A stretch of DNA of 64,000 nucleotides, taken from Bhargavaea sp. CC-171006 (GTDB lineage: Bacteria > Bacillota > Bacilli > Bacillales_A > Planococcaceae). The stretch lies in contig NZ_QUZH01000030.1 in NCBI RefSeq assembly GCF_009761675.1, positions 1 to 64,000 of the forward strand, in the 5' to 3' direction. Shown here piece after piece: positions 6,118 to 62,425 of the stretch. The notes under the pieces were generated by a model. The model worked only from the letters and a program-made list of their open reading frames with translations, was not told the origin of the DNA and did no database searches. Positions within the stretch are counted from its first letter, which is position 1; each line of letters opens with the position of its first letter. The position numbers and the translations under genes were made by a program.

Positions 6118-6272
6118 AGTACGAACCGGCGATCCGTAGTACGGATGTTGGGCGCGTACTCCGAATTCGGTTCCTATAGTACAAAGCCGCAGATTTAAAT
6201 ATGAAATGGGGCCACCAAGTCCGGAATTGGCGCTCTAACTCCGATTATGCGGCTGTAAGTCCGCCCCCGTCC
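6118..6272. repeat. Degenerate 20-bp tandem array A (about eight units)
   Basis: Units start every 20 bases at 6118, 6138, 6158, 6178, 6198, 6218, 6238 and 6258. Their first bases are AGTACGAA, AGTACGGA, ACTCCGAA, AGTACAAA, AATATGAA, AGTCCGGA, ACTCCGAT and AGTCCGCC; the remaining 12 bases are hardly conserved. The array fills the ecfT-truA gap and stops at the ecfT stop codon. It is not a CRISPR: there is no constant repeat with unique spacers of usual size. Confidence 0.75.
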
Positions 6273-7070
6273 TTATCCCCGCAGGAACCACAGTGCCACG
6301 ATCACCGCGAGCAGGATCAGCAGCGCCGTGGTATCCCGCCAGTCCCATTTTAATTGACGGTAGCGGGTCCGCCCTTCTCCCCCGCGGTAGCCGCGGACCT
6401 CCATCGCGACGGCGAGGTCTTCGGCGCGCTTGAAGGCGCTGACGAAGAGCGGGACAAGCAGCGGGACGACCGCCTGGATGCGTTCCTTCATCGTGCCCGA
6501 CGAGATGTCGGAGCCCCGTGCAAGCTGGGCCTTCAGGATTTTGTCGGTCTCATCCATCAGGGTCGGAATAAACCTGAGCGAGATCGACATCATAAGCGCA
6601 AGCTCGTGTACCGGGAATTTCACTTTCTTCAGCGGGTTCAGCAGCACCTCGAGCCCGTCCGTGATCGAGATCGGAGACGTCGTGAGTGTGAGGAGAGACG
6701 TCATCAATACGAGCACGAGGAACCGGACCGAGATATAGATCCCCTGCCGCAGACCTTCTTCATAGATTTTCAGGAACCCGAGCTGGAACAGCAGGTCGCC
6801 TTCTTTCGTGAAGAAGATATGCAAAAGGAAGGTGAATGCGATCAGGAACATGACCGGCTTCAGGCCGCCTATCAGAAAACCGATGCGAACCTTGGATGCA
6901 AGGATCGCCAGCAGCGTAAAGGCGAGCAGGAGCGCGTAGCTTACCGTGTTGTTCGCAAGGAACACGGCCGCGATGAAGATGAAGACGAAGATCAGCTTCG
7001 ATCGCGGATCGAGCCGGTGGACAAATGAATCACCGGGAATGTATCGGCCGAACACCATTTTCTCCATCAT
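6273..7070 (-). CDS. ecfT: ECF transporter transmembrane (T) component
   Basis: 265 residues, with N-terminal helices, and the cytosolic coupling motifs of EcfT near the C-terminal half (AQLARGSD and AMEVRGYRG, both with the Ala-Arg-Gly type signature). EcfT joins the two ATPases to interchangeable vitamin-binding S components; no S component is encoded here. Start chosen at ATG 7070, which overlaps the ecfA2 stop (ATGA); the longer open frame upstream lies inside ecfA2. Confidence 0.95.
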   Translation of the reverse strand: MMEKMVFGRYIPGDSFVHRLDPRSKLIFVFIFIAAVFLANNTVSYALLLAFTLLAILASKVRIGFLIGGLKPVMFLIAFTFLLHIFFTKEGDLLFQLGFLKIYEEGLRQGIYISVRFLVLVLMTSLLTLTTSPISITDGLEVLLNPLKKVKFPVHELALMMSISLRFIPTLMDETDKILKAQLARGSDISSGTMKERIQAVVPLLVPLFVSAFKRAEDLAVAMEVRGYRGGEGRTRYRQLKWDWRDTTALLILLAVIVALWFLRG

Positions 7071-7939
7071 GACGCGCCGCCCCCTTTCCGGAGGTCCGCC
7101 GCAAGATAGGCCGCGAGCTGCTCTTCGGTGAGTGCCGGAGGGGCAGGCGGCAGGCCAGCGCCTTCCTCGTACAGCCGCTGGAAGCTGACGGTGCGCGGAA
7201 CGCCTAAGCGCCACTGTGCGAGGCGCTCCGCATCCGCGAACACTGTTTCAGGCGGTCCCTGCAGGACGTCCGTTCCGTCATGCATGACGATCATATGGTC
7301 CGCGTAGCGTGCGGCGTCCTCCATGCTGTGTGTGACGAGGATCGTCGTCATGTCCCGCTGTTCGTGGAGCTCATAGAACAGGTCCATGATCTCCTTGCGT
7401 CCGGCAGGGTCAAGGCCCGCGGTCGGTTCGTCCAGAACGAGCACATCCGGCTCCATCGCCAGCACTCCTGCAATCGCGACTCGGCGCATCTGGCCGCCCG
7501 ACAGGTCGAACGGTGACTTTTCCGCCGTCCCTTCGGGCAGGCCAAGACGTTCGATCCAACTGAGCGCGCGCGTCCTCGCCTCTTCTTCTTTCACGCCGAA
7601 GTTCAGCGGGCCGAACATGACATCCTTCAGCACATTTTCCTCGAACAGCTGATGTTCGGGGAACTGGAAGACGATGCCGACTTTGCGGCGGATGGGCTTC
7701 AGCTGCTTGCCCTTTGTCTCCTTGGTGACTTGGGTATCGCCGATGCGGACGATGCCCGCCGTCGGCTTCAGGAGGCCGTTCAGGTGCTGCAGGAGCGTCG
7801 ATTTTCCGGAACCCGTGTGGCCGATGATGGCCGTGTAGGAGCCCGACGGAATGCGGACGTTCACATCATGGAGCGCCTGCTTCTGGAATGGCGTACCCGC
7901 CGCGTATGTGTAATCTACCTGTTCGAGCGCAATGTCCAT
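7067..7939 (-). CDS. ecfA2: ECF transporter ATPase A2
   Basis: 290 residues of an ABC ATPase: Walker A GHTGSGKST (40-48), Q-loop FQFPEHQLFE, signature LSGGQMRR (about 146), Walker B VLVLDEPTAGLD and a switch His in VTHSMED. The FPEHQLF Q-loop distinguishes EcfA2 from EcfA1. GGTGGAG precedes ATG 7939, which overlaps the end of ecfA1 by 25 bases. The C-terminal tail is rich in Ala/Pro. Confidence 0.96.
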   Translation of the reverse strand: MDIALEQVDYTYAAGTPFQKQALHDVNVRIPSGSYTAIIGHTGSGKSTLLQHLNGLLKPTAGIVRIGDTQVTKETKGKQLKPIRRKVGIVFQFPEHQLFEENVLKDVMFGPLNFGVKEEEARTRALSWIERLGLPEGTAEKSPFDLSGGQMRRVAIAGVLAMEPDVLVLDEPTAGLDPAGRKEIMDLFYELHEQRDMTTILVTHSMEDAARYADHMIVMHDGTDVLQGPPETVFADAERLAQWRLGVPRTVSFQRLYEEGAGLPPAPPALTEEQLAAYLAADLRKGGGAS

Positions 7940-8760
7940 AGCTGCTCCACCAACTTCCGTTCTGTCATCGTTCCTGGCTCTGTTCCGATCCCCTGCTCCC
8001 CGAGAAGCGCGGACAGCCTCATGGCGAACGGCAGATCCAGCCCGAGTGCCGTCAGACCCTCTCCCTTCAGGAAGACCTCCTGCGGCGTTCCTTCCGCGAA
8101 TTTCCGGCCGCCGTTCATGACCACGACCCGGTCCGCAAGCAGCGCCTCCTCCAGGTCATGGGTGATCGAGATGACGGAAAGTCCCGTCTTTTCTCTCAGG
8201 TCGAGGATGACCCGGATCACTTCCTCGCGCCCCTGCGGATCAAGCATCGAGGTCGCCTCGTCCAGGATCAGCAGCCTCGGCCGCAGGGCCAGTGCCCCTG
8301 CAATCGCCACACGCTGCTTCTGGCCGCCGGACAGGTGTTGCGGCTCATGATCGAGGAAGGTGTCCATCTTGACCTGCTTGAGCGCATCCTGCACACGGAG
8401 TGTCATCTCCTCGAACGGGATGCCGTTGTTCTCAAGGGCAAAGGCGACATCGTCCTGCACGGTCGCGCCGACAAACTGGTTATCCGGGTTTTGGAACACC
8501 ATGCCCATCTGAGAACGCTTTTCCCAGAGGTTGTCCTCCGTGAGCGTGTCGCCGAACAGCCCCACTGTCCCCTCCTGCGGGAACAGAAGGCCGATCATGA
8601 GCCGGGCAAGCGTCGACTTGCCCGAGCCGTTATGGCCGACGACGGCGATCCACTCGCCCGCCTGCATGTCGAACGATACGCCGTCCACCGCATAGCGGCT
8701 GTCCGGGTCGTCCGGTGTATAGGTAAAACGGACGTCCTGAAGGGACAGGATCCGTTCCAT
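7915..8760 (-). CDS. ecfA1: ECF transporter ATPase A1
   Basis: 281 residues with Walker A GHNGSGKST (42-50), Q-loop FQNPDNQFVG, signature LSGGQKQR (about 143), Walker B LLILDEATSMLD and switch THDLEE. The FQNPDNQF loop is that of EcfA1. Start set at ATG 8760, seven bases after GGAGG; the ATG two codons upstream sits too close to it. First gene of ecfA1-ecfA2-ecfT, which energises uptake of vitamins through separately encoded S proteins. Confidence 0.96.
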   Translation of the reverse strand: MERILSLQDVRFTYTPDDPDSRYAVDGVSFDMQAGEWIAVVGHNGSGKSTLARLMIGLLFPQEGTVGLFGDTLTEDNLWEKRSQMGMVFQNPDNQFVGATVQDDVAFALENNGIPFEEMTLRVQDALKQVKMDTFLDHEPQHLSGGQKQRVAIAGALALRPRLLILDEATSMLDPQGREEVIRVILDLREKTGLSVISITHDLEEALLADRVVVMNGGRKFAEGTPQEVFLKGEGLTALGLDLPFAMRLSALLGEQGIGTEPGTMTERKLVEQLWTLRSNR

Positions 8761-8870
8761 AGTCATTCCTCCTCTGCTTCGCTCAACTCTGCTGTCTATT
8801 GTAACGGAATCCGGAGGCCGTGTCGTCCGGCCCCGGCGGGTTTGGCGCGCACTTCGGCGGCCTCTGGGAC

Positions 8871-8975
8871 ATATGTCAACGTTTAAGTCAGATATGTCAA
8901 CGTCTCAATGAAATACGGCAACGTCTCAGCCGAATATAGCAACGTCTCACTCCAATAAAGCAACGTTTCACTGCC
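8871..8975. repeat. Degenerate 21-bp tandem array B (five units)
   Basis: Five units of exactly 21 bases start at 8871, 8892, 8913, 8934 and 8955. Plus-strand consensus ATAnnGCAACGTYTCAnnnnA: four of five contain CAACGTYTCA and the first has CAACGTTTAA. It lies between the terminator at 9013 and ecfA1. The motif closely resembles array F at 62357. Confidence 0.85.
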
Positions 8976-9012
8976 AAACGCTCCCCGGCGCCATCCCGTT
9001 TCCGTCAGTATG

Positions 9013-9052
9013 TAAAAAAAAAGCGCGCACCCCAACTGGTGACTGCGCTTTT
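9013..9052 (-). terminator. Strong terminator at the end of the structured interval
   Basis: AAGCGC pairs with GCGCTT with an inner CACC/GGTG stem, then nine T on the minus strand. It ends no recognised protein gene and defines the 3' end of the candidate RNA. Confidence 0.85.
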
Positions 9053-9172
9053 GTCGTATGGCATGACCGGCGGCTGCTCACACCGCCGGGACCATGATGG
9101 GGTGCGGAGAGCTAGACGGGACGCAAGCAGTTGCTCCGCCCATCATAACGCTCAGCTTTTTCATTTGCCGTA
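9013..9172 (-). ncRNA. Candidate structured RNA between rplQ and ecfA1
   Basis: After the rplQ terminator the minus strand has TATAAT (9178-9183), then about 160 bases that fold into three hairpins: ATGATGGG-CGGAG (9146-9134) with CTCCG-CA-CCCATCAT (9109-9094); CCGGCGG (9089-9083) with CCGCCGG (9073-9067); and a terminator with nine T. A -35 box is poor. A 28-codon frame (9164-9078, MKKLSVMMGGATACV...) overlaps but has no ribosome site. It could be an sRNA, a leader of the ecf genes or a 3' element of the rplQ operon. Confidence 0.5.
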
Positions 9173-9185
9173 TAAATCATTATAG

Positions 9186-9230
9186 AAAGAAAAGGGTGCC
9201 GTCCATACTCAGGTAACCGCACACCCTTTT
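9186..9230 (-). terminator. Terminator / 3' element of the alpha operon
   Basis: AAAAGGGTG and CACCCTTTT form a near-perfect stem a few bases after the rplQ stop, followed by a T-rich stretch (CTTTC). An L17 downstream element (a known RNA motif after rplQ in some Firmicutes) is an alternative reading. Confidence 0.75.
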
Positions 9231-9241
9231 CCGTACTGCAA

Positions 9242-9622
9242 TTAAACGAGTTCGATGATGACGACCGGTGCGCCGTCACCGCGACGAGGGCCGACCTTCA
9301 TGATGCGTGTGTAGCCGCCCTGACGCTCAGCGTAGCGAGGTGCCACATCGTCGAACAGTTTCTGCAGTGCATAGACCGTTTGTTCGTTGCCTTCTTCGTC
9401 AGTCGTCGTAACGAGTTCGCGACGGATGAATTCGGCAGCCTGACGGCGTGCATGGAGATCACCGCGTTTTCCGAGAGTGATCATTTTCTCAACGACGGAA
9501 CGGAGCTCTTTCGCACGCGTTTCAGTCGTCTGCAGGCGTTCGTTGATGATGAGATCGGTTGCGAGGTCACGAAGCATCGCCTTACGCTGGGAGCTTGTAC
9601 GACCTAACTTTCTGTAGCCCAT
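9242..9622 (-). CDS. rplQ: 50S ribosomal protein L17
   Basis: 126 residues. N-terminus [20 protein letters not shown] is the L17 signature, and the C-terminus [16 protein letters not shown] is conserved. The insertion with acidic residues [10 protein letters not shown] is common in Bacillales. Last gene of rpsM-rpsK-rpoA-rplQ; terminator follows. Confidence 0.98.
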
Positions 9623-9669
9623 CGAGTTTCCCTCCTTTTGGGTAAATTGGATGGTCCGCTATGGACGAT

Positions 9670-10611
9670 TTATTCTTCCGTACGCAGGCCGAGTCCGAGA
9701 TCTGTCAGCTTCGCCTTGACCTCTTCGAGGGACTTGCGGCCCAGGTTGCGCACTTTCATCATTTCATCTTCGCTCTTGTTCGCGAGCTCAAGCACCGTGT
9801 TGATGCCGGCACGCTTCAGGCAGTTGTAGGAACGGACGCTCAGGTCGAGCTCCTCAATCGTCATCTCGAGGACCTTCTCCTTCTGGTCTTCTTCCTTCTC
9901 CACCATGATCTCGACGGACTGTGCTTCATCCGTGAGGCCGACGAAGATGTTGAGGTGCTCGGTCAGGATCCTGGATCCGAGCGAGATTGCCTCTTGCGGC
10001 CCGATGCTGCCATCGGTCCAGACGTCGAGGGTCAATTTATCGTAATCGGACAGTTGTCCGACACGTGTGTTTTCCACCTGGAAATTGACGCGTGAGACTG
10101 GGGTGTAAATGGAGTCGATCGGGATCACGCCGATTGGCAGATCTTCACGCTTGTTGCGGTCAGCCGGAACATATCCGCGCCCGCGCTGTGCATACATGCG
10201 CATGCGGAGGTGGCCATTCTTGCCGACAGTCGCAATATGGAGATCCGGATTGAGGATTTCAACGTCGCTGTCATGCGTGATGTCTGCGGCCGTTACCTCG
10301 TTCTCGCCCTTCACATCGATCTCGATGACTTTTTCGTCGTCCGAGTAGATTTTCAGAGCAAGTTGCTTCACGTTCAGGATGATCGATGCCACATCTTCCA
10401 CGACGCCGTCAACCGTCGAAAACTCGTGGAGGACTCCGTCAATCTGGATGGATGTAACAGCGGCACCCGGCAGTGAAGAAAGAAGAATCCGTCGCAGGGA
10501 ATTGCCCAGGGTGGTTCCGTAGCCCCGCTCAAGCGGCTCCACGATAAACTTTCCATAGGTGCTTTCCACAGTCTGTACAGCTTCAATCCTCGGTTTTTCT
10601 ATTTCGATCAT
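9670..10611 (-). CDS. rpoA: RNA polymerase alpha subunit
   Basis: 313 residues. The N-terminal assembly domain begins [12 protein letters not shown] with [14 protein letters not shown], and the C-terminal domain (after a linker at about 230-245) holds [16 protein letters not shown] and the [12 protein letters not shown]/activator-contact helix. Start ATG 10611 lies nine bases after AGGGAGG; an in-frame GTG three codons upstream is too close to the SD. The gap of 131 bases to rpsK is long for this operon. Confidence 0.98.
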
Positions 10612-10742
10612 CAAATTCACCCTCCCTCAAAACGTCCATGAATGGCAGTTCCTATTGGAAATCGATATACAAGACAACTATTGCACTCTCACAAACCAGT
10701 TTATCCGTAAATCGTGTTTCTCAATCAATGGACGGACAGCCA

Positions 10743-11141
<399 letters not shown>

Positions 11142-11157
11142 TTACCTCCTTTACTGA

Positions 11158-11523
11158 TTATTTCTTCTTGTTTGCGACTGTCTTGCGCGGGCCCTTACGG
11201 GTACGTGCGTTGTTCTTCGTGTGCTGACCGCGTACAGGAAGGCCGCGGCGGTGGCGGATTCCACGGTTGCTGCCGATTTCCATCAGACGCTTGATGTTGA
11301 GGTTCGTTTCACGGCGAAGGTCACCTTCAACTTTCAGGCTGTCGATTTGTTCACGGATCTTGTCGAGCTCGGCGTCAGTGAGATCGCGTACGCGAGTCTC
11401 TTCGGAAACGCCTGCGCCGGCGAGGATCTTCTGGGAAGTCGTTTTACCGATTCCGTAGATGTAAGTGAGAGCGATGACTACGCGCTTCTCGCGCGGTACG
11501 TCTACACCAGCAATACGTGCCAT
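11158..11523 (-). CDS. rpsM: 30S ribosomal protein S13
   Basis: 121 residues starting [15 protein letters not shown] at ATG 11523, eight bases after AAGGAGG; upstream in-frame ATGs lie within the SD region. C-terminal basic tail [16 protein letters not shown] contacts P-site tRNA. Confidence 0.98.
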
Positions 11524-11546
11524 ATATTCGTGCACCTCCTTAAGGT

Positions 11547-11690
<144 letters not shown>

Positions 11691-11695
11691 TTAGA

Positions 11696-11914
11696 TCATT
11701 TGTAACGGTATGTGATACGGCCACGGGTCAGATCGTAGGGGGAAAGTTCCACTGTCACACGGTCACCCGGCAAAATCCGGATATAGTGCATCCGCATCTT
11801 TCCGGAAACGTGCGCAAGGATCGTATGGCCGTTTTCGAGTTCCACTTGAAAATTAGCTCCTGGCAGAGTCTCGACGACCTTGCCTTCCACTTCGATTAAA
11901 TCATCTTTCGCCAT
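11696..11914 (-). CDS. infA: Translation initiation factor IF-1
   Basis: 72 residues, full length, single S1/OB fold with [20 protein letters not shown]. Binds the 30S A site during initiation. AAGGGATG precedes ATG 11914. Usually map lies between adk and infA; here the 300-base gap upstream has no map gene. Confidence 0.98.
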
Positions 11915-12065
11915 CCATCATCATCCCTTCATGTTAGAATCAGGTCTCTCTTCGTCCCGCTGCGCCCTACCTTCAAACATATGAACGGTCTGCATGAGAG
12001 ATGTCCGAAAGACTACCAATGGATTCCGCTTCCCTGTCCGAAAAACGGACAAATCCACGGTCCCC

Positions 12066-12071
12066 ATTATA
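12066..12071 (-). promoter_or_regulatory. Possible -10 of an infA promoter
   Basis: Perfect TATAAT on the minus strand, 152 bases before infA; the -35 region is not recognisable. Confidence 0.35.
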
Positions 12072-12126
12072 CCTTGTTCCGGACTGCATTGCATGGACGG
12101 AGTCCCGCCACGCCTGCATTTCCGCG

Positions 12127-12161
12127 CCATGTCCGCCGTTCGCAGCGGTCGGCGGACATGG
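12127..12161. repeat. Perfect 12-bp inverted repeat after adk
   Basis: CCATGTCCGCCG and CGGCGGACATGG separated by 11 bases. GC-rich and very stable as RNA, but with no T-run on either strand, so not a standard terminator. It starts 52 bases past the adk stop. Confidence 0.8.
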
Positions 12162-12212
12162 TCTGCCGTCACATGCCATAAAACAGGATCGTCTCGCCTC
12201 CCCGGCACGGGT

Positions 12213-14207
<1,995 letters not shown>

Positions 14208-23069: not shown

Positions 23070-23462
<393 letters not shown>

Positions 23463-23507
23463 TCAGCAACCTCCCGCTTCATCGCAGTCAAATGACCAAC
23501 ATTCCGT

Positions 23508-25410: not shown

Positions 25411-25458
25411 CCCCTTCAGAAAGTGAATGCGAACAGAATCACACGCTCCATTTTTATG

Positions 25459-25521
25459 AGTGCGCATAGAGTAGGCATAACCGCGCATAGAACTGCAGCA
25501 AGCGCGCATAGGAATCCTTGC
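25459..25521. repeat. Degenerate 21-bp tandem array C (three units)
   Basis: Three 21-base units start at 25459, 25480 and 25501, each with plus-strand core GCGCATAG at the same position (AGTGCGCATAG, ACCGCGCATAG, AGCGCGCATAG). It lies between the leuD terminator and the promoter of the YuiF-like gene. Confidence 0.75.
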
Positions 25522-25557
25522 GCGCTCATTGTCAGCCATTATATTGCTCCGCACACA

Positions 25558-40980: not shown

Positions 40981-41060
40981 TAAAAAACATATCATTTTTC
41001 CTGAGCTCGAAAAAGGGCGAATACCCCAGAGAAAAACGGCGATGATGATGACTCCTATAG

Positions 41061-41150
41061 TACAATTTCTCTCCCTATCATACGATTTGCGGCTGCGAAC
41101 TACGATTTACCGAACCATACTACTAAACTGCCATATATAAGTACGATTCC
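41061..41150. repeat. Degenerate 20-bp tandem array D (about five units)
   Basis: TACAATTT, TACGATTT, TACGATTT, TACTAAAC and TACGATTC begin at 41061, 41081, 41101, 41121 and 41142; spacing 20, 20, 20, 21. It lies between the rpoC terminator and the str promoter. Confidence 0.75.
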
Positions 41151-48741: not shown

Positions 48742-48770
48742 TTATTATACTATCATCGAATTTTTGTCAA
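48742..48770 (-). promoter_or_regulatory. SigA-type promoter of rpoBC
   Basis: TTGACA with TAATAA at 17 bases (or the overlapping TATAAT at 15). A second TTGAC box lies five bases upstream and a third further up, as near-direct repeats of ACTTGACAAA. The box overlaps the end of rsmC. Confidence 0.65.
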
Positions 48771-48771
48771 G

Positions 48772-49389
48772 TCAATGTTTGTCAAGTCGTTTTTTGAGCG
48801 ATCTGTAGATGAAGTAGCCTTTTTTCTTTTCCTCCGCCGTGGCATTCCCGAAAAGCTCCTGGAGTTTCTTCTCGGTGGACGCGGCGCCCTGTTTTTTCTG
48901 GATGACAACCCAGAGCTCGCCCCCTTCGGCGAGAAGGCGGTAGGCATCTTCATAGATCCGGAAGACCGTATCCTTGCCTGCGCGGATCGGAGGATTCGTC
49001 AGGATGGCCGCAAACCCGCTTCCCCGCACATCCGCACCCGCGTCACTTTCATAGATCACCGTATTGCCGGCGCCGTTTGCGCCGGCATTTTCGCGCGCAA
49101 GATCAAGCGCGCGGCTGTTGACGTCGACCATATGGACGGTCCTGTCCGGCAGCAGTCTGGCCGCAGTCAGTCCGACCGGACCGTACCCGCAGCCGATGTC
49201 CAGGAGATCTCCCGGAATTTCCGGTTCCCTGAATGTATCGATCAGGAGCCTGGAACCGAAATCAACACTTTCCTTGCTGAATACACCCGCATCCGTCTTG
49301 AAACGGAACGGGATGCCGCGCAGCGTCGCCGTCCAGGTCTGCGGCGCGCTCTCGGTGCCCGGGTTCTTCGAATAGTAATGATCCGCCAT
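48772..49389 (-). CDS. rsmC: Class I methyltransferase, RsmC-like (YbxB)
   Basis: 205 residues: SAM-binding motif LDIGCGYGPVG, acidic VDVNSRAL and catalytic NPPIRAG, the pattern of 16S rRNA m2G methyltransferases. Between rplL and rpoB as ybxB is in B. subtilis. GGAGGCG SD. Target residue is inferred from the family only. Confidence 0.88.
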   Translation of the reverse strand: MADHYYSKNPGTESAPQTWTATLRGIPFRFKTDAGVFSKESVDFGSRLLIDTFREPEIPGDLLDIGCGYGPVGLTAARLLPDRTVHMVDVNSRALDLARENAGANGAGNTVIYESDAGADVRGSGFAAILTNPPIRAGKDTVFRIYEDAYRLLAEGGELWVVIQKKQGAASTEKKLQELFGNATAEEKKKGYFIYRSLKKRLDKH

Positions 49390-50484: not shown

Positions 50485-50634
50485 CGCATATCAACGGAAA
50501 AGCCCTGTATCCGCGTACGCAGACACAGGGCATTAAAGTCGGCTTCATTCGATCAAGCACGTCTTTGTCCTCGGCAGGGAAATTTTAAGCGGCATGCCGC
50601 CCCTGCTGTCTACGGTACAAACGATATTCACAAC
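50485..50634 (-). ncRNA. Ribosomal protein L10 leader
   Basis: Minus-strand RNA with the well-known L10 leader pattern: CCGTAGACAGCAGGGGCGGC, TTAAAATTTCCCTGCCGAGG, then a hairpin CCCTGTGTCTGCG/CGGATACAGGG followed by CTTTT (50497-50532), which acts as an attenuator. Matches Rfam L10_leader (RF00557) by eye. Confidence 0.9.
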
Positions 50635-53908: not shown

Positions 53909-54418
53909 TCATTTTAGTCCGCGGCGCCATTTTTCGAAAATTTCGGCCACATCGTCATTGAGCGGGATCTTGGAAAACGGCCGGTTTTCGCGGATTTCCC
54001 GCACCCGTTTCGCTATGCCGTCACGCACCTCGCCCATTTCGAGACGGAGCTCCCGGGCGGATTTCCGCAGGGCTCCCTGCGCGAAAATGACACGCTGCTC
54101 GGTAAAGTCCGATGTGGCGACATGAACCCGGGTGCGCCGGCTCCCGAGTTCGGAGGCGAGACGCTCGATGCGCTCGTCCGCCGTCTCGTTTTCCCTGGTA
54201 AATATCACCTCGACATCCCGCCGCCGCTGTGGCTTCGGGATGCCCGGGACGTACTGTGCATCAAATACGACAATCACCCGCCAGCCCGTGTATGCCCGGT
54301 ATTCGGCCATCAGCTCGACGAGCAGGTCGCGGGCATCTTCCAGCCGGGCATCACGGAGCGCTTTCAGCTCAGGCCATGCGCCGATGATGTTGTAGCCGTC
54401 GACGAGCAGGACGTCCAT
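53909..54418 (-). CDS. rae1: Rae1 (YacP) ribosome-dependent endoribonuclease
   Basis: 169 residues, NYN/PIN-like fold: VLLVDGYNIIGAWPEL at the N-terminus (acidic Asp7) and VIVVFDAQYVPG. In B. subtilis Rae1 cleaves mRNA in the ribosomal A site. ATG 54418 overlaps the rlmB stop (TGATG). Confidence 0.9.
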   Translation of the reverse strand: MDVLLVDGYNIIGAWPELKALRDARLEDARDLLVELMAEYRAYTGWRVIVVFDAQYVPGIPKPQRRRDVEVIFTRENETADERIERLASELGSRRTRVHVATSDFTEQRVIFAQGALRKSARELRLEMGEVRDGIAKRVREIRENRPFSKIPLNDDVAEIFEKWRRGLK

Positions 54419-55173
54419 CACTGACCGCCTTCCGGATCACGCTTCCGGAACACTTCGTACATCAGGAGCGCCGCGGCGACGGAGGCATTCAGGGAATTCA
54501 CATGCCCGACCATCGGCAGGCTATACAGGAAGTCGCACTTGTCCCGCAGAAGGCGGCTCATGCCGCGGCCCTCGCTGCCGATGATGACGGCAAGCGGCAG
54601 GCCCGCGTCCATCTTGCGGTAGTCGGCGTCCCCCTTGGCATCGGTGCCCGCAATCCAGACACCACGGTCTTTCAGCTCATCCACGGTGCGCGCCATATTG
54701 CCGACCCGCACGACCGGGACATGTTCGATCGCGCCTGTCGATGCCTTGGCGACCACGCCGGTCAGGCCGACGGAGCGCCGCTTCGGGATGATGATGCCGT
54801 GCACGCCGGAAGCGTCCGCCGTCCGGAGGATCGATCCCAGGTTATGCGGGTCTTCGAGCTCGTCCAGAATCAGGAAAAACGGGTCTTCCCCGCGCTCTTC
54901 GGCCCTGCGGAACAGATCGTCCATTTCCGCATAGTCGTAGGCGGCGATGGAAGCGACAACGCCCTGGTGGGTCAGATCGGTCAGCTGGTCGAGCTTTTTA
55001 TTCGGCACCTGCTGAACAACCGTGCCGGATTCTTTTGCGAGGCGGCGGATATCCGAGGCAAAGCCTTTCTGTATGCCTTCTCCAATCCAGATCTTATTCA
55101 GTTGGCGCCTCGAACGCAGCGCCTCGAGCACGGGATTGCGTCCCGCAATGATTTCTTCTTCACGGTTCGTCAC
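54418..55173 (-). CDS. rlmB: 23S rRNA (guanosine-2'-O)-methyltransferase RlmB-like
   Basis: 251 residues: N-terminal L30e-like substrate domain and SPOUT domain with [26 protein letters not shown] and [13 protein letters not shown] start overlaps the mrnC stop by four bases, AAAGGAGGGG upstream. Modified residue is inferred from the family. Confidence 0.93.
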
Positions 55174-55589
55174 CGCGCATCCCCTCCTTTCGCTTCCGCA
55201 AAATCAATGGCGTACCGGATCACTTCATCGAGCCGCTCCTTTTTGCCGAGCAGATGCAGATAGCCGACCAGCGCCTCGAATGCCGTGCTGTAATTGTACG
55301 TCTGCACATCCGTGTTTTTCGGAGCATGTCCCGATTTGGCGTTCCGCCCCCGGCGGACGACCGCGGACTCCGCTTCATCAAGGAATCCGCCCTCTTCCAT
55401 CGAGATGACGATGGCCGCCTGGGACTTAGCGGACACATAGCCGGTCGCAAGCCGGTGAAGCGTGTTCGGCTTCGCCCGGCCGGAGCGGATCAGGTGCTCG
55501 CGGATGGCCACTTCGTAGATCGCATCCCCCATGTAGGCGAGCGCGAGCCCGTTTAGCTGCCGGATGTCGCCGTCACTGATTCCAGCCAT
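55170..55589 (-). CDS. mrnC: Mini-ribonuclease III
   Basis: 139 residues from ATG 55589 ([20 protein letters not shown]); [10 protein letters not shown] contains catalytic Asp22. RNase III fold without an RNA-binding domain; matures 23S rRNA in B. subtilis. Four bases after the cysS stop. Confidence 0.94.
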
Positions 55590-55593
55590 CCGA

Positions 55594-56994
55594 TCAGCCC
55601 CTCTTCCAGCGGACGCCCTGCCGGGTATCCTCAAGGACGATTCCCTGGCTCAGCAGATGATCGCGGATTTCGTCAGCACGCTTGAAGTCACGGTTTTTCC
55701 GCGCATCCTCGCGCTCGGCGATCAGTGCATCAACTTCTTCACCCGGAAGCTCATGCGCGGTCTCAAGCGAGATGCCGAGCACGCCGGCAAGCTTGCTGAA
55801 CGTCCCGAGGAATGCCTGAAGCACATTTTTCTGGGTGTTTTTCTCGTTCAGGTAGGTATTCGACAGGCGGGCCAGATCGAACAGCACTGCTATGGCATTG
55901 GCGGTGTTGAAGTCGTCATCCATCGCGGTTTCAAATGACTTTTGTGCCTCTTTGATCTTGTGGAGCCAGATGTCTCCCTGATCGCCGTTGTCCGCCGTCT
56001 GCTCTAGGCGGAACATGAGGTTCCGGTATGCCGTGCGGAGCCGCTCGAGGGCATTTTCCGCATCCCCGATCACCTCAGAGGAGAAGTTGATCGGGTTCCG
56101 GTAGTGGACTGTGAGCATAAAGTAGCGCAGCACCTGCGGATCGATTTTCTGCCGGATGTCGTGGACGGTGATGAAGTTTCCGAGCGATTTCGACATTTTC
56201 TCGTTGTCGATGTTCACGTAGCCATTATGCAGCCAGTAGTTCGCAAATGTTTTGTCGTTGTGCGCCTCGCTCTGGGCGATTTCATTTTCATGGTGCGGGA
56301 AAGTCAGATCCTGGCCGCCTGCATGGATGTCGATCGTATCGCCAAGCACTTCACGCGCCATGACCGAGCACTCAATGTGCCAGCCCGGACGGCCCGCACC
56401 CCATGGGCTTTCCCACGAGATTTCACCGGGCTTCGCGGCTTTCCAGAGGGCGAAGTCGAGCGCATCTTCCTTTTTCTCGCCGGGCTGGATGCGTGCGCCG
56501 ACCTTGAGCTCATCAATCGACTGCTGGGAAAGCTTGCCGTAGCCGTCGAACTTCCGCGTCCGGTAATAGACGTCGCCGCCGGACTCGTAGGCGTAGCCCT
56601 TGTCGATCAGCACGCCGATAAAGTCGATGATGTCCCGGATATGGTCCGTGACTCGCGGATGGTCATCCGCATGGCGGCAGCCGAGCGCCTCGATGTCCGC
56701 GAAGTATGCGGCGATAAACCGCTCCGTCAGCTCACCGACCTCTTCACCGATTTCGTTCGCCGCTTTGATGATCTTGTCGTCGACGTCGGTGAAGTTCGAG
56801 ACGAAGTGGACGTCGTAGCCTTTGTATTCCAGGTAGTTGCGGACCGTGTCATAAACGATGACCGGGCGGGCGTTGCCGATATGGATGTAGTTGTAGACGG
56901 TGGGCCCGCATACATACATCTTCACTTTACCCTCTTCGATCGGGACAAACGGTTCTTTTTTTCTGGTGAGTGTATTGAACATCTGGATGGTCAT
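55594..56994 (-). CDS. cysS: Cysteinyl-tRNA synthetase
   Basis: 466 residues. [17 protein letters not shown] holds the zinc Cys29 and the HIGN motif (38-41); KMSKSLGNF is present at about 265. ATG 56994 overlaps the cysE stop (ATGA), with AAGGAGG upstream. Controlled with cysE by the T-box. Confidence 0.98.
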
Positions 56995-57647
56995 CGTCTT
57001 ACCTCCTTCAATTGCTCCTGCAACTTCTCCAATTCTCTGTTGAGCCGGGCGATCTTTTCTTCCAGCATGTCGCATTTGTCTGCGACAGGATCCGGGATGT
57101 CCTGATGGTCAAGCTTTTTGGGCACCTTGACCCCATTTTGGACGACGACAGTCCCCGGAATTCCGACGACTGTCGAATTCGGCGGAACGTCTTTCAGCAC
57201 GACCGACCCCGCACCGACTTTCACGTTGTCTCCGAGCGTGATCGACCCGAGCACCTTCGCACCTGACGCAACGAGCACGTTGTTGCCGAGCGTCGGGTGG
57301 CGCTTGCCCTTTTCCTTGCCGGTCCCGCCGAGTGTCACGCCCTGGTAGAGCGTCACGTCATCGCCGATCACACAGGTCTCCCCGATGACGACGCCGGAAC
57401 CATGGTCGATAAAGAACCGGCGGCCGATGACGGCACCCGGGTGGATCTCGATCCCGGTCAGGAACCGGACAACCTGGGAAACGAACCGGGCCAGAAAGCG
57501 CAGGCCCCTTTTGTGAAAAGCATGGGCAATCCGGTAGCCCCAGAGCGCATGGAGACCCGAATAGGTCAGCACAATCTCAAAGGAACTTCTTGCCGCAGGG
57601 TCCTGGTCGAAAATTGTCGCAATATCTTCTTTCATCCTCTTGAACAT
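56991..57647 (-). CDS. cysE: Serine O-acetyltransferase
   Basis: 218 residues from ATG 57647 ([18 protein letters not shown]), GGAGG ten bases upstream. Left-handed beta-helix with hexapeptide repeats ([20 protein letters not shown]) and catalytic His in DHGSG. First step of cysteine synthesis from serine. Ends with a charged helix. Confidence 0.97.
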
Positions 57648-57710
57648 GGTAGGGCATTCCTCCAAATATCCGAAAACTGAGGCGGGCGGGAGGCGGCATG
57701 GCCGCAAAAC

Positions 57711-57741
57711 AAAAAGCGCCCCTGTCAACTGACAGAGACGC
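57711..57741 (-). terminator. T-box terminator before cysE
   Basis: GCGTCTCTGTC pairs with GACAGGGGCGC around AGTT, then TTTTT. Confidence 0.9.
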
Positions 57742-57970
57742 CTGGTATGCGCGGTTCCACTCTGGTTTGGGAGGAGCAAAAAGCGCCCCTCCCCCCTCGG
57801 TGCCCGTAACGGGGGCAAGGCGGCCGGCCTACTTCATTTCGGCTCGGCGCTCCGAGGTGCATTTCCGCGCGCAGCGGCCCGGGCCGCTTTCAGCCGGCGG
57901 CGGCCCTCTCTGTCGAGCATGCGCAACGTACTTCTCCTCTTCGTCGCTTTCGGTATGTTGTATCCTTATT
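57711..57970 (-). promoter_or_regulatory. Cysteine T-box riboswitch of cysE-cysS
   Basis: Textbook T-box on the minus strand: AGTA (specifier-loop 5' side), AGAGAG, GGCTG apex, specifier TGC (Cys) at 57861-57859 in GAAATGCACC, then AGAGTGGAACCGCG and the terminator. Uncharged tRNA-Cys would promote readthrough into cysE, cysS and probably mrnC-rlmB. Confidence 0.93.
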
Positions 57971-57977
57971 GACCTCT

Positions 57978-58005
57978 ATTGTACTTGGGGAACGCGGAAA
58001 GTCAA
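57978..58005 (-). promoter_or_regulatory. SigA-type promoter of cysE-cysS
   Basis: TTGACT and TACAAT with a 16-base spacer, just after gltX and right before the T-box. Confidence 0.75.
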
Positions 58006-58040
58006 TTGATTAAACCGTATGCGGAAAATGACCGGGGCAT

Positions 58041-59498
58041 TCAGCCTGCATACGCGGAGACACGCCGGATAACCTTGTCGCGGCCAAGAAGCGAGATTGA
58101 TTCCTGGAGCTCCGGACCATGCGTCTGGCCGGTCGTCACGACGCGGATCGGCATGAAGAGGTTCTTGCCCTTGTGTCCGGTCTCTTTCTGCACGGCCTTG
58201 ATTGCGCCTTTGATCGATGCCGGATCGAACGATTCGAGTTCCTCGAGCTTCGTCTTGAATGCTGTCATGACTTCCGGAACCTGCTCGCCCGAAAGGACGG
58301 CCTTTGCTTCCTCATCGTATTCGATGTCTTCGTTAAAGAACTGGGCGGACAATTCGACAATTTCCGCACCGAAGCTCATCTGCTCCTGGTACAACGCGAT
58401 CAACCGCTCGGCCCATTCCCGCTCTTCTGCCGAAAGCTCTTCCGGCAGGCGGCCCGCCTTCTGTAGATGCGGCAGCGCCAGCTTCACGACTTCCTCGAGA
58501 GGCAGTTGCTTGACGTACTGGTTGTTCATCCATGTCAGCTTCTGCTTGTCGAAAAGCGCGGGCGACTTCGAAAGACGGTCCGCTTCGAACATTTCGATGA
58601 ACTCTTCCTTCGAGAAGATTTCATCCTCGCCCTTCGGCGACCAGCCGAGAAGTGCGATGAAGTTGAAGAGCGCCTCCGGCAGGTAGCCGAGCTCCTCATA
58701 TTGCTCGATAAATTGGATGATCGATTCGTCACGTTTCGACAATTTCTTGCGGCTTTCGTTCACGATCAGTGTCATATGGCCGAATGTCGGCGGCTCCCAG
58801 CCGAACGCCTCATAAATCATCAACTGCTTCGGCGTATTGGAGATGTGGTCATCCCCGCGGAGCACATGCGAGATCTTCATATAGTGGTCGTCGACCGCCA
58901 CCGCGAAGTTATAGGTCGGCACGCCATCCTTTTTCACGATGACCCAGTCGCCGAAATCACCGGATTCGAACGATACTTCATCCTTGACCATGTCCTGGAA
59001 TTTGTACGTGCGGCCTTCCGGCACGGCAATGCGGATGCTTGGCTGGCGGCCTTCCGCTTCCAGCTTCGCGCGGTCGTCGTCTGTCAGATGACGGCACTTG
59101 CCGCTGTAGCGCGGCATTTCCCCGCGCGCCTGCTGGGCTTCGCGCTCCGCTTCCAGTTCTTCTTCGGTGCAGTAGCACTTGTAGGCCAGCCCCTTCTCCA
59201 GGAGACCGTCGTACAGTTCCTTGTAAAGGTCGTTCCGCTCCGATTGGCGGTACGGCCCATATTCACCGCCGACATCAATGCTCTCATCCCAGTCCATGCC
59301 GAGCCATTTCAGGTAGCGGAGCTGCGATTCCTCGCCGCCCTCGATGTTGCGCTTGGCGTCGGTGTCCTCGATCCGGATGATGAATTTGCCGCCGTTGTGG
59401 CGGGCGTAGAGATAGTTGAAGAGCGCCGTCCGGGCGTTCCCGATATGCAGATGCCCCGTCGGACTCGGTGCATAGCGTACACGGACTTCCTGTGTCAT
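58041..59498 (-). CDS. gltX: Glutamyl-tRNA synthetase
   Basis: 485 residues from ATG 59498 ([20 protein letters not shown]), AGGAGG upstream. HIGN motif (18-21) and [10 protein letters not shown]. In Bacilli the enzyme charges both tRNA-Glu and tRNA-Gln. The long upstream frame is not family-like. Confidence 0.98.
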
Positions 59499-59539
59499 AA
59501 TTGGTTCCTCCTGTTCGTTCGAACATGTTTGCTCCGTCC

Positions 59540-59567
59540 ATTTTACCACAGCGCGAGAGGTTTTAAA
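59540..59567 (-). promoter_or_regulatory. Possible promoter of gltX
   Basis: TTTAAA and TAAAAT with a 16-base spacer, 42 bases before gltX. Confidence 0.4.
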
Positions 59568-59601
59568 GCGCGGGGCATGGGTGAACCGAGTGAAGGCCGG
59601 G

Positions 59602-59695
59602 ATGTCTGCGCGTGAACTTTGAAGATTCGTGCGCGAACACCGGGGCGGAGAGGTTTTCGCACGCAAACTTCCCCGATTCGTACGCGAACCCATTC
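59602..59695. repeat. Degenerate ~21-bp repeat array E
   Basis: CGYGAAC/CGCAAAC cores recur with their final GAAC or AAAC at 59614, 59635, 59665 and 59686 (spacing 21, 30, 21); GATTCGT also recurs before two of them. It lies between the ispF terminator and the gltX promoter. Weaker than arrays A, B and D. Confidence 0.5.
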
Positions 59696-59713
59696 ATACC
59701 CTCTTCTCCACGC

Positions 59714-59742
59714 AAAAGGCCGCCCGAGATATCCGGGCGGCC
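59714..59742 (-). terminator. Terminator after ispF
   Basis: GGCCGCCCG and CGGGCGGCC with a short loop, then TTTTG, seven bases past the ispF stop. Confidence 0.9.
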
Positions 59743-59748
59743 CTGTTT

Positions 59749-60225
59749 TTACGCTTTCTCCAATAAAATCACCGCGAGTGCGGCAATCCCTTCTTCGCGG
59801 CCGACAAAACCGAGCTTTTCGGTCGTCGTCGCCTTGACATTCACCTGCGACACATCCGCATGAAGCAGTTCCGCGATGCGGGTTCGGATTTTGTCGATAT
59901 GCGGCGCCATTTTCGGCCGCTGGGCCATAATCGTGCAGTCCACATTTCCGAGCTTCCAGCCCTGCGCTTTGACATCCGCCCAGACCCGTTCCAGCAGCAC
60001 CGCGGAATCCGCGTCCTTGAACGCCTCGTCGGTGTCCGGGAAGTGATGGCCGATATCCCCTCCGCCGATCGCGCCCAGTGCAGCGTCGGTTACGGTATGC
60101 AACAGCACATCCGCATCCGAGTGCCCGATGAGGCCGCGCTCGTGCGGAATGGTCACGCCGCCGATGATGAGCGGGCGCCCTTCTGCGAATTCATGCACGT
60201 CAAATCCTTGTCCGATCCTGATCAT
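59749..60225 (-). CDS. ispF: 2-C-methyl-D-erythritol 2,4-cyclodiphosphate synthase
   Basis: 158 residues, trimeric MEP-pathway enzyme. GQGFDVHEF (zinc ligands Asp/His), [10 protein letters not shown] and the [13 protein letters not shown]-terminal motif. ATG overlaps the ispD stop (ATGA). Confidence 0.97.
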
Positions 60226-60926
60226 TCTTTCTCCTCCTGCCGTTCCAACAGCGCCTCGCCGATCGCGAGGTCCACCTTTGTCGTCATCTTCAGATTATCA
60301 TACGTGCTCTCGACGACGCGGACGGGATGTCCGAGCCGCTCGACCAGCATCGATTCGTCCGTACCGAGAAATCCTTCGGACAGCGCTTTTTCCTCAGCCT
60401 CGGCCAGCAGGTCCGCGCGGAATGCCTGCGGGGTCTGCACAAGCCACACGGTGCTCCGGTCGGGCGTGGATTGTACGACTCCGGCCGCCACCTGTTTCAC
60501 GGTATCCTTGGACGGAACCGCGGCAATCGCGGCGCCGTGCTCCTGCGCCGTCTCCGCCAGTTCCCGGATCACCCGGGGGGAAAGGAAAGGCCGCGCGGCG
60601 TCATGCACCATGACGACCGCCTCGTCCCCGCCGCCCGCAGCGATAAATGCCCGGACACATGCGCGGACACTGTCCTGCCGCTCTCCCCCGCCGTCCGGCA
60701 TCGCCGTGATTTTCGTGATGCCGTGGTCCGCCAGCATTTCCCGGATCCGGTCCCGTTCATCCGGACGCACTGCAAGGATGATGCCGGTGCAGTCCGGGTC
60801 CTGCTGGAACACGGAAAGCGTCCGGACAAGGATCGGCTTCCCCGCGAGCGGAAGGAACAGCTTGTTTTCCCCTGCTCCCATCCGCCGGCCGCTTCCCGCC
60901 GCCGGCAGCATGACTGTGTATTCCAT
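60222..60926 (-). CDS. ispD: 2-C-methyl-D-erythritol 4-phosphate cytidylyltransferase
   Basis: 234 residues from ATG 60926 ([17 protein letters not shown]), eight bases after GGAG. CTP-binding AAGSGRRMG and [10 protein letters not shown], plus [14 protein letters not shown] isoprenoid pathway with IspF. The upstream in-frame start lacks an SD. Confidence 0.96.
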
Positions 60927-60976
60927 TCGATTCCACTCCATCAAGCGAAAGGACAGGGCCGGGGCCCTGCCTTCCG

Positions 60977-62053
60977 TCAGTTTTTCGCTTTCACGTCACG
61001 CGGCCGGGCAAAGATCATCCGTCCCGCAGACGTCTGCAGCACACTTGTCACCGCAACGGTGAGCGTCTTGCCGATCTGGTTTTTCCCGTTTTCGATAACG
61101 ATCATCGTCCCGTCGTCCAGGTAAGCGACTCCCTGATTGGCTTCCTTGCCTTCCTTGATGACGGTGACGCGCATTTCCTCGCCCGGGATGACGACCGGCT
61201 TCACGGCATTTGCCAGGTCGTTGATGTTGAGTACCCGGACATTGTGCAGTTCGCACACTTTGTTCAGGTTGAAGTCGTTTGTCACGACAACCCCGCCGTT
61301 TTTCTTTGCCAGGCGGACAAGCTTCATGTCGACTTCGCTCACGTCATCAAAGTCTTCGTCGGTGATGACGGTCTGACGGTCGTCCTGGATCCGCTTCAGG
61401 ATGTCGAGCCCCCGGCGCCCCTTCGTCCGCTTAAGTGAGTCGGATGAGTCCGCGATGTGCTGCAGTTCGGTCAGGACGAATTGGGGGATGACCAGCTCGC
61501 CCTCCAGAAAACCGGTTTCCGAAATGTCCGCAATCCGGCCATCGATGATGACGCTCGTGTCGAGGATTTTCTGGCTTGCCGTTGATTCGGAAGGCGGCTG
61601 TACACCGTCTTTTTTCTTTTCCCCGCTTCTCGTGAACGTCTGGATCAGCTCTTCACGCTTCTGGAAGCCGAACTGGAAACCGAGGTAGCCGAGAAGCACG
61701 GAGAGGATCACCGGCAAAATGTCCGTGATGGGCGGGAACTGGATTGCGCCGACTGCGAAAGACAGCAGAAACGCAACAATCAGACCGATGATCATACCGA
61801 CCGTTCCGAACAGCAGGTCAAGCACGGGCGCTTTCATAAGACGCTCCTCAAGCCACTTGATTGATCGTACGGTCGGCTCTGTCAGCACGAGGCTCAGCAG
61901 ATAAAAAAGAATGGCACCGATTAATGCGGAAGTATAGGCATTGGTGAGCCATAGCTGGTTAACGGATAAAAGTTCGAATAATGACGGAAGAAAAATGGCA
62001 CCAAGCGTGGCCCCGATCAGTGCATAGGCAACCTTTACAAAAAAGTTCAGCAT
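60977..62053 (-). CDS. yacL: PIN/TRAM domain membrane protein YacL
   Basis: 358 residues from ATG 62053, AAGGAGGTG upstream. Four N-terminal membrane helices (to about 135), then a PIN domain (ILDTSVIIDGRIADI, conserved acidic residues) and a C-terminal TRAM domain. Probable RNA-active nuclease of unknown target. In B. subtilis disA lies between radA and yacL; here it does not. Confidence 0.92.
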   Translation of the reverse strand: MLNFFVKVAYALIGATLGAIFLPSLFELLSVNQLWLTNAYTSALIGAILFYLLSLVLTEPTVRSIKWLEERLMKAPVLDLLFGTVGMIIGLIVAFLLSFAVGAIQFPPITDILPVILSVLLGYLGFQFGFQKREELIQTFTRSGEKKKDGVQPPSESTASQKILDTSVIIDGRIADISETGFLEGELVIPQFVLTELQHIADSSDSLKRTKGRRGLDILKRIQDDRQTVITDEDFDDVSEVDMKLVRLAKKNGGVVVTNDFNLNKVCELHNVRVLNINDLANAVKPVVIPGEEMRVTVIKEGKEANQGVAYLDDGTMIVIENGKNQIGKTLTVAVTSVLQTSAGRMIFARPRDVKAKN

Positions 62054-62253
62054 GGTTTTCACCTCCTTGTTTAAAGTATACACGTTCGACCCCCGGACTT
62101 CCTTCCGGAGAGGGATGAAAACCAAAAGATTTCCATAATTATTCGGACGCCCGGGGAGGAAAGAAGTTCCTTATGAAGAGGCGCCGCCCGTGGCGAAGTG
62201 ATCCGGACAGTCCGGATCCTCAAATCCTTCCCCTTCCCGCCCCTCCCGAAACC

Positions 62254-62291
62254 AAAAAACGGCCCCGCCGCATGTATATGCAACGGGACCG
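62254..62291 (-). terminator. Terminator after radA
   Basis: CGGTCCCG pairs with CGGGGCCG (one G-U) and six T follow. It is 135 bases after the radA stop. Confidence 0.8.
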
Positions 62292-62425
62292 CCTTGTTTT
62301 AATCTATGCCGCAACGTTTCGTGCGTGAGGGCCGGGTTTTCCGGCAAGCCGCGGACGATTGTCAACGTTTCACCAAAATTCGTCACCGCTTCACCCAAGA
62401 TCGTGAATCTCTCAATAAAACCCGC
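62292..62425. other. radA 3' region, in place of disA
   Basis: No gene; consists mainly of repeat array F. The remaining 200 bases up to yacL (62054-62253) also contain no gene and no trace of disA that I can recognise. Confidence 0.7.
62357..62419. repeat. Degenerate 21-bp tandem array F (three units)
   Basis: Units at 62357, 62378 and 62399: GATTGTCAACGTTTCACC, ATTCGTCACCGCTTCACC and GATCGTGAATCTCTCAAT, each continuing to 21 bases. The core GTCAACGTTTCA matches array B. It sits between the radA stop and its terminator. Confidence 0.7.

What the first reader, a model, noticed from the sequence alone, without database searches (positions are those of the whole stretch)
6118..62419. A family of locus-specific 20/21-bp phased arrays in intergenic DNA
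Six gaps in 64 kb carry direct repeats of about two DNA turns, each locus with its own motif, none inside genes, four placed between a terminator and the next promoter. Two helical turns per unit would present the motif on one DNA face. Possible roles: binding by a nucleoid protein, a barrier between neighbouring transcription units, or a repeat-generating replication process. I know no named element with these traits, though similar arrays may have been seen in Bacillales.
Basis: partly seen in the sequence, partly recalled or inferred. Interest (0 to 1): 0.7.

Follow-up and report, generated by a model that had tools for sequence, protein, structure and literature searches.

The report
Phased 20/21-bp arrays between bacterial operons
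A bacterium of the genus Bhargavaea carries many short DNA arrays between its genes in which a conserved core recurs at two turns of the helix; the cores change slowly in evolution and the filler between them does not, which points to unknown proteins that bind these arrays side by side.

Summary
The window lies in a Bhargavaea genome (Planococcaceae, Bacillales). In the half I read (1.63 of 3.27 Mb), 69 of 885 intergenic gaps carry arrays: 20 with period 20 and 51 with period 21 (two in both), against 0.1 each in shuffles. Other periods from 8 to 65 bp are rare, except multiples of these two. A unit is a 9-15 bp core plus filler. Motifs are not locus-specific: cores form families shared by many loci, with different fillers. 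In four 21-bp families 157 of 161 steps between neighbouring cores are exactly 21 bp. Between species cores differ at 8%, fillers at 34%, the rest of the gap at 34% (arrays present in both species). Arrays avoid promoter gaps, favour convergent gaps and often lie beyond a terminator. One family forms opposed 4+4 arrays. Families differ between congeners. Best reading: operator arrays for cooperative, sequence-specific DNA-binding proteins, one specificity per family, acting between transcription units. Protein and benefit are unknown. STAR elements of staphylococci are closest in kind, but not the same family.

The parts
6116..6265 (+). 20-bp array between ecfT and truA: 8 degenerate cores (TAAGTACGAA ... 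TAAGTCCG) at 20-bp steps
   Evidence: sequence, cores placed by eye; shuffle test (0 of 1000); the same gap carries 20-bp arrays in 5 of 6 other Bhargavaea records, with other core variants in two
8877..8970 (-). 21-bp array, family F1 (TGARACGTTG on the minus strand), 5 cores at 8877, 8898, 8919, 8940, 8961, between rplQ and ecfA
   Evidence: orthologous gap in six other Bhargavaea records
25458..25527 (+). 21-bp array, family F4 (GCGCATAGAA), 3 direct cores and 1 inverted core
   Evidence: 0 of 1000 shuffles
41055..41125 (+). 20-bp array, 4 degenerate cores of the TAGTACGAA type
   Evidence: 1 of 1000 shuffles; cores placed by eye
59608..59690 (+). two pairs of GCGCGAAC-like cores 21 bp apart; not in the significant list
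   Evidence: sequence shown; read by eye
62363..62414 (-). 21-bp array, degenerate F1, cores at 62363, 62384, 62405, between a radA-like gene and a PIN/TRAM-domain gene
   Evidence: 0 of 1000 shuffles; third core by eye
8798..8826 (-). promoter-like site (ACGACA-17-TACAAT) beyond the F1 array
   Evidence: similar by eye in the gap of the six named Bhargavaea records

Best explanation
Each array is a multi-site operator for a sequence-specific DNA-binding protein that binds cooperatively, one protomer or dimer per core, on the same face of the helix because cores are 20 or 21 bp (two turns) apart. Different core families are the sites of different specificities. The nucleoprotein stretch (about 80-110 bp for 4-5 units, or opposed 4+4) sits between operons, mostly beyond terminators, and most likely acts as a physical boundary (transcription roadblock or insulator, topological or nucleoid anchoring). 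Shown: near-exact spacing, shared cores, slow core evolution, filler drift, placement, lineage-specific family sets. Inferred: that a protein binds, that binding is cooperative, and the boundary role.
For: Core mismatches 61 of 759 aligned positions, fillers 202 of 593, rest of the compared stretch 367 of 1094, over 15 comparisons at 8 loci, not independent, gap columns apart, and chosen because both sides keep an array. Opposed F3 arrays: of 17 candidate rows nine have 29 bp between central cores; four of the nine (three gaps: L142, L154, L160 twice) have four units on each side, and L126 by eye with one degenerate unit. Array gaps of 140-600 bp: convergent 18 of 48, tandem 27 of 270, divergent 3 of 109. 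A terminator-like hairpin lies between gene and array at 48 of 72 gene 3' ends, beyond the array only at 8, none found at 16. Five direct arrays show no RNA structure (z 0.5, -1.25, 2.0, 0.2, 0.2). Core families are absent as adjacent pairs from some congeners: F1 in G067 and G077; F2 in G022, G067, G086; F3 in G067, G086.
Against: No binding protein found. In 1518 predicted proteins of half the genome no family stands out as numerous enough; the largest clusters that look DNA-binding by eye are 11 response-regulator-like and 7 LysR-like proteins, although a dozen or more core families would need as many specificities. LytTR (3 or 4 per genome in 8 of 8) and HTH_17 (none over cut-off) do not track the families. 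Loss at single loci does not follow family abundance well: F1-rich G086 has no array at L006 and L153, F1-rich G003 has 2 and 3 cores there, while F1-poor G022 has an intact 5-unit array at L006; G077, with no strict F1 pair, still has a few F1-like stretches. One search left out the decayed orthologues. Other exceptions: L127 has a 4+4 array with a 19-bp centre, and three F3 arrays have five direct units and no opposed arm; 20-bp arrays have 4-11 units. Density differs several-fold between congeners (69 gaps in 1631 kb own; 21 at period 21 in 200 kb of G086; 9 in 400 kb of G077). No transcript or binding data.
Confidence: 0.5

Rival explanations
1. Selfish repeats: the arrays are sites of mobile or parasitic DNA-binding factors (transposase, recombinase, RAYT-like) and persist where they do no harm; families come and go with the factor.
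For: Lineage-specific families and several-fold density differences between congeners; avoidance of promoter gaps; places beyond terminators.
Against: No sign of copying between loci in three families: best in-register filler identity of arrays in different gaps 0.70 (F1, whose filler is partly conserved), 0.61 (F2), 0.64 (F3); only the tandem duplication at L160 reaches 0.86. No terminal repeats or site duplications seen by eye in the four gaps compared. Cores stay conserved at fixed loci between species.
Confidence: 0.22
2. Neutral minisatellites: tandem duplication by slippage makes arrays, and the period reflects the footprint of a replication or repair event.
For: Some arrays look young, with near-identical units (L137, L155, L151; G040 C40); unit gain and loss between species.
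Against: Fillers evolve about four times faster than cores; only 4 of 161 steps depart from 21 bp; the same core at many loci with unrelated fillers.
Confidence: 0.1
3. RNA-level elements: the arrays act as transcribed leader or 3' RNA.
For: The ecfT-truA array lies between two codirectional genes (terminator not tested there); two opposed F3 arrays fold strongly (z -3.4 and -3.0), as inverted cores must; 24 of 72 gene ends have no terminator before the array.
Against: Five direct arrays have no structure; at 48 of 72 gene ends a terminator-like hairpin precedes the array; the window and two 20-kb array loci give only the L10 and S10 ribosomal leaders in Rfam.
Confidence: 0.06
4. Ordinary operators of a few regulators (for example LytTR or response regulators), multiplied upstream of their target promoters.
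For: Direct repeats about 21 bp apart are typical of LytTR operators (recalled); the F1 core resembles them loosely; the 8877 array lies upstream of a promoter-like site; response-regulator-like proteins form a sizeable cluster.
Against: Arrays avoid divergent gaps and prefer convergent gaps, where no promoter of the neighbours is expected; LytTR genes do not vary with the families.
Confidence: 0.12

Closest known systems
STAR elements of Staphylococcus (PMC3532100; parts 1 and 3 of 5 read)
   Same: Bacillales; intergenic; conserved short core with variable spacers; locus-specific spacers; copy number varies; abundance not correlated with phylogeny; no known function in that paper
   Different: One 14-bp core with at least 40-bp spacers, about 50-nt units, most loci with a single motif, spacers often near-identical within a locus; here many core families, 20 or 21-bp spacing, mostly 4-5 units at period 21, opposed 4+4 arrays, fillers mostly unlike within arrays
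BldC direct-repeat operators of Streptomyces (PMC5859096; passages read)
   Same: Works like: asymmetric head-to-tail cooperative binding to direct repeats of varying number
   Different: 9-bp repeats; the sites read about are promoters; no HTH_17 protein over cut-off in 8 Bhargavaea genomes
REP/BIME and Neisseria NIME elements (recalled)
   Same: Intergenic, families differ between relatives
   Different: Those are palindromic; the direct arrays folded here are not structured
Iterons of plasmid origins (recalled)
   Same: About 20-22-bp direct repeats in helical phase
   Different: Here tens of chromosomal loci and many core families, between operons
Prokaryotic satellites (PMC6749651; part 1 of 5 read)
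   Same: Tandem arrays of at least four units
   Different: Those need internally regular units; Tandem Repeats Finder reported only two of the window arrays as 21-bp repeats

Membership tests
STAR elements | 14-bp core, searched as TNTGTTGNGGCCC | tested here: not met
   0 matches in 1.63 Mb of the own genome, both strands
STAR elements | spacers of at least 40 bp | tested here: not met
   unit 20 or 21 bp, filler 6-12 bp
STAR elements | intergenic direct repeats with locus-specific spacers | tested here: met
REP/BIME | palindromic, hairpin-forming unit | tested here: not met
   five direct arrays z between -1.25 and 2.0; F3 and F4 arrays contain inverted cores, and two F3 arrays fold strongly for that reason
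LytTR operators | cognate LytTR regulators that vary with the core families | tested here: not met
   3 LytTR genes in 7 genomes and 4 in one, also where F1 pairs are absent; binding by one of them to one family is not excluded
BldC-type operators | BldC-like (HTH_17) protein in the genome | tested here: not met
   0 of 8 genomes over the cut-off; four have one weak partial match
CRISPR arrays | repeats of roughly 21-48 nt with long unique spacers (recalled) | tested here: not met
   cores 9-15 bp, filler 6-12 bp
CRISPR arrays | adjacent cas genes | not tested
   no cas search run
Plasmid iterons | array next to a replication initiator gene | tested here: inconclusive
   neighbours of three window arrays are ribosomal, ecf, truA, radA-like and PIN/TRAM genes; other loci not annotated
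Neutral minisatellites | whole unit evolves alike | tested here: not met
   core 8.0% against filler 34.1% mismatches in arrays kept by both species
Cooperative operator array | a protein that binds the cores in phase | not testable with these tools
   needs binding experiments

The most novel reading that the evidence does not exclude
A multi-specificity boundary system of Planococcaceae: a diversifying set of unknown DNA-binding proteins, each with its own core, builds phased nucleoprotein filaments of fixed size (about 5 units, or opposed 4+4) in the DNA between operons, as insulators or chromosome organisers, and protein and core turn over together between species.
Probability: 0.3. Interest if true: 0.88.

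Novelty: new variant of a known kind. Interest (0 to 1): 0.7.

Why it matters
If cores are protein sites, one small genome holds of the order of a hundred boundary-like nucleoprotein arrays that a standard repeat finder mostly missed in the window, and comparison of congeners gives a natural experiment on how a binding specificity and its sites evolve together. It would also suggest a testable function for STAR-like intergenic repeats, which had none in the 2012 paper read here.

Tried and rejected
LytTR regulators as the common factor: 3-4 per genome regardless of families. BldC-like HTH_17 proteins: none over cut-off. A numerous paralogous DNA-binding family: none stands out in half the proteome (by eye). 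Genes lost in syntenic parts of G077 and G086: only 65 and 19 own genes in syntenic context, 9 and 3 missing; a LysR-like and a GntR-like protein among them by eye, not followed. Phage arrays as the source (decoy idea): F1, F2 and F3 unit pairs hit 15, 10 and 73 stretches of viral contigs, and no two listed hits lie 21 bp apart; the plasmid and phage record collections were not searched. Copying between loci: see rivals. Strict loss of a trans factor: my first F1 count for G022 used GARACGTTG and missed a GTTA variant; with GARACGTTR it has 6 pairs, 4 of them in one intact array, and F1-rich genomes also lack arrays at some loci, so I dropped that as evidence. RNA function: see rivals. A common YGAR anchor in all 21-bp cores: true of many by eye, but not of F4 or the Lysinibacillus antri core, so not claimed.

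Limits: gene calls come from my own simple ORF scorer (onward), so some gaps are mis-bounded; a few low-scoring entries (for example AT-rich ones in L144 and L158) are probably not arrays. The unit tally (62 arrays: 34 of 45 with four units at period 21) has a floor of four by construction and failed (0 or 1) for two arrays. Core/filler positions were set on one sequence of each pair, and gapped columns (core 53, filler 43, outside 371) are not counted as mismatches. Searches covered 200 genomes of the family. Half of the own genome was read. In one search one genome (G011) gave no gap to examine.
Full report
WHERE IT IS. The window is part of a 3.27-Mb, 32-contig genome. EcfT from the window is 93-95% identical to EcfT of five Bhargavaea records and 84% to a sixth, so the organism is taken to be a Bhargavaea (Planococcaceae, Bacillales). 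The left part holds genes whose domains fit rpoA, rplQ, two ecfA, ecfT and truA.

IS IT REAL. Tandem Repeats Finder reports 8898-8977 and 62357-62404 as 21-bp repeats and none of the other window arrays as such. A statistic that sums matches at one, two and three periods over four units finds more. In the window five of 36 gaps pass at 20/21 bp with at most 1 of 1000 shuffles as good. In 1.63 Mb of the genome (81 sources, 885 gaps, 305 kb) the number of gaps with score 5.5 or more is 20 at period 20 and 51 at period 21, 69 distinct, against 0.1 each in ten shuffles; 40, 42 and 60 give 16, 13 and 10; the other periods from 8 to 65 give 0-9. Coding DNA (1421 segments) has none at 20 and 12 at 21, the latter in line with other codon multiples. 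Smaller samples gave the same picture.

ANATOMY. A unit is a core of roughly 9-15 bp and a filler. In F1-F3 most core positions carry 1-2 bits and most filler positions 0.1-0.8, though some filler positions next to the core, above all in F1, are partly conserved. Cores form families seen at several loci: F1 TGARACGTTG, F2 GAAAGTGAYGAA, F3 GAATGACGARAY, F4 GCGCATAGRA (21 bp), and 20-bp families around TTACTCCAA, TTATKKCAA, TAAGTCCGA and TASTACGAA. A dozen or so further cores in the list occur at one or two loci each, by eye. Spacing of neighbouring cores between 17 and 25 bp is 21 in 128 of 128 steps with one substitution allowed per core, and in 157 of 161 with two (two at 20, two at 22). Among neighbours within 10-70 bp the 20-bp families have 25 of 28 (TTACTCCAA, which includes a near-perfect 11-unit array), 19 of 23 (TAAGTCCGA) and 11 of 19 (TASTACGAA) at 20; TTATKKCAA is looser (22 at 20, 5 at 21; only its eight commonest offsets were printed). 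Chains of at least three cores have 4-6 units in F1 (8 arrays), 5-8 in F2 (7 arrays) and 3-5 in F3 (21 chains, 14 with four); 20-bp arrays range from 4 to 11. F3 often comes as two opposed arms. At L142, L154 and twice at L160 four units face four units with 29 bp between the central core starts; L126 has the same with one degenerate unit; L127 has 4+4 with 19 bp; L147, L155 and L157 have five direct units and no opposed arm. In five of six F4 gaps listed, one inverted core lies 14-16 bp from a direct one.

PLACEMENT. Of gaps of 140-600 bp with known neighbours, 18 of 48 convergent, 27 of 270 tandem and 3 of 109 divergent gaps carry an array (chi-square p about 1e-9). At 72 gene 3' ends facing an array of score 7 or more, a terminator-like hairpin lies before the array at 48, only beyond it at 8, and none was found at 16. 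There is no matched control for random positions, so this shows placement, not enrichment. On contig C3 of G086 F1 pairs occur on both strands without visible trend (by eye).

EVOLUTION. In the rplQ-ecfA gap six other Bhargavaea records keep the terminator and promoter region much alike while the F1 array between them varies in unit number, filler and integrity; in two it is a remnant. In the ecfT-truA gap 20-bp arrays are found in five of six, and the core itself differs: TCGGACTTA in three, TTGGAGTAA plus TCGTACTTA in one, TTGCAATTAGA in one; the sixth has only traces. Over 15 pairwise comparisons of orthologous arrays at 8 loci (several share a locus or genome; decayed orthologues left out), cores differ at 61 of 759 aligned positions, fillers at 202 of 593 and the rest of the compared stretch at 367 of 1094. 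One F2 array is nearly identical between the own genome and G077, filler included, in a stretch that is itself highly similar. Fillers of F3 are about as unlike within arrays (0.35 identity) as between arrays (0.32); F1 and F2 are somewhat more alike within (0.52 and 0.49) than between (0.43 and 0.40). So many units are old, cores are kept, and new units arise now and then by tandem duplication.

FAMILIES COME AND GO. Adjacent F3 pairs: 111 in the own genome, 26-88 in five congeners, 0 in G067 and G086, two single hits in 192 genomes of other genera. F2 pairs: 45 in own, 17-40 in four congeners, 0 in three, 0 in the 192 others. F1 pairs (GARACGTTR, genus only): own 30, G003 53, G056 46, G086 97, G040 10, G022 6, G077 0, G067 0. 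Reversed control patterns gave 0 for F1 and F3 and 4 hits in three other-genus genomes for F2. Single loci do not simply follow these totals. At L032, G003 and G056 keep arrays, G040 has three units, G022 decayed units, G077 one remnant; at L029 G077 has none; at L153 G056 and G003 have two or three cores, G077 degenerate ones, G040 one, G022 and G086 none; at L006 G022 has five, G040 and G056 four, G003 two, G086 none. G086 has 21 gaps with period 21 in 200 kb, several in duplicated segments and many with cores not seen in the own sample; G077 has 9 in 400 kb. Beyond the genus, in 73 loci of other genera (885 gaps) period 21 is found in 9 gaps, hardly above some other periods in this AT-rich DNA (9: 8, 17: 6), but four of them look like true arrays (Lysinibacillus L066 and L078, Sporosarcina L109 and L111). 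The L. antri core gives 10 unit pairs at six loci of its genome and none in four other genomes, the S. luteola core 15 pairs at six loci and none in four others (two mismatches allowed, controls 0). Of 18 other genera sampled with one or two stretches of up to 20 kb (G011 gave no gaps), two show a score of 6.5 or more at 21 bp, so density there is low.

MECHANISM. Two-turn spacing with few exceptions, small unit numbers, slow cores and free fillers are what an array of sites for a cooperatively binding protein should show. Placement away from promoters and mostly beyond terminators argues for action on DNA between operons rather than promoter control. I therefore favour a boundary role (roadblock, insulator or anchoring), at 0.5 for the operator-array model as a whole; the boundary step is inference. 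The main weaknesses: no protein is known, many core families would need many specificities, and density and single-locus presence vary strongly between congeners, which a selfish variant would also explain.

LITERATURE. Nine searches of the held open-access library, seen as capped listings, showed no description of such arrays. STAR elements (PMC3532100, parts 1 and 3 of 5 read) are the nearest in kind. The satellite survey (PMC6749651, part 1 of 5 read) asks for regular units and would probably miss degenerate arrays. BldC (PMC5859096) was read in passages. Most subscription papers and preprints were not searchable.

Noticed in passing
window 1-114: Strong 18-bp (6-bp based) repeat AAGTGCGACGGCAAGTGC, partly inside a 92-aa ORF; similar CACTTGCA-rich repeats lie in L041 and L044, so it is probably a repetitive protein gene.
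   Followed up: no
window 50487-50633 (-) and 23394-23490 (-): Rfam matches to the L10 leader and the S10-Clostridia ribosomal leader.
   Followed up: no
L160 3434-4020: A whole 4+4 F3 array is tandemly duplicated, with matching fillers; the G077 gap has one copy.
   Followed up: partly
L304 (G086): Two pairs of identical arrays 1.5-2 kb apart, apparently segmental duplications.
   Followed up: no
G040:C40:321-541: About eleven near-identical F2 units in a row near a contig end, the youngest-looking array seen.
   Followed up: no
window 48759-48796: 15-bp repeat AATTTTTGTCAAGTC, 2.5 copies, near the start of a 1183-aa ORF that is probably rpoB (not tested); not of the 20/21-bp kind.
   Followed up: no
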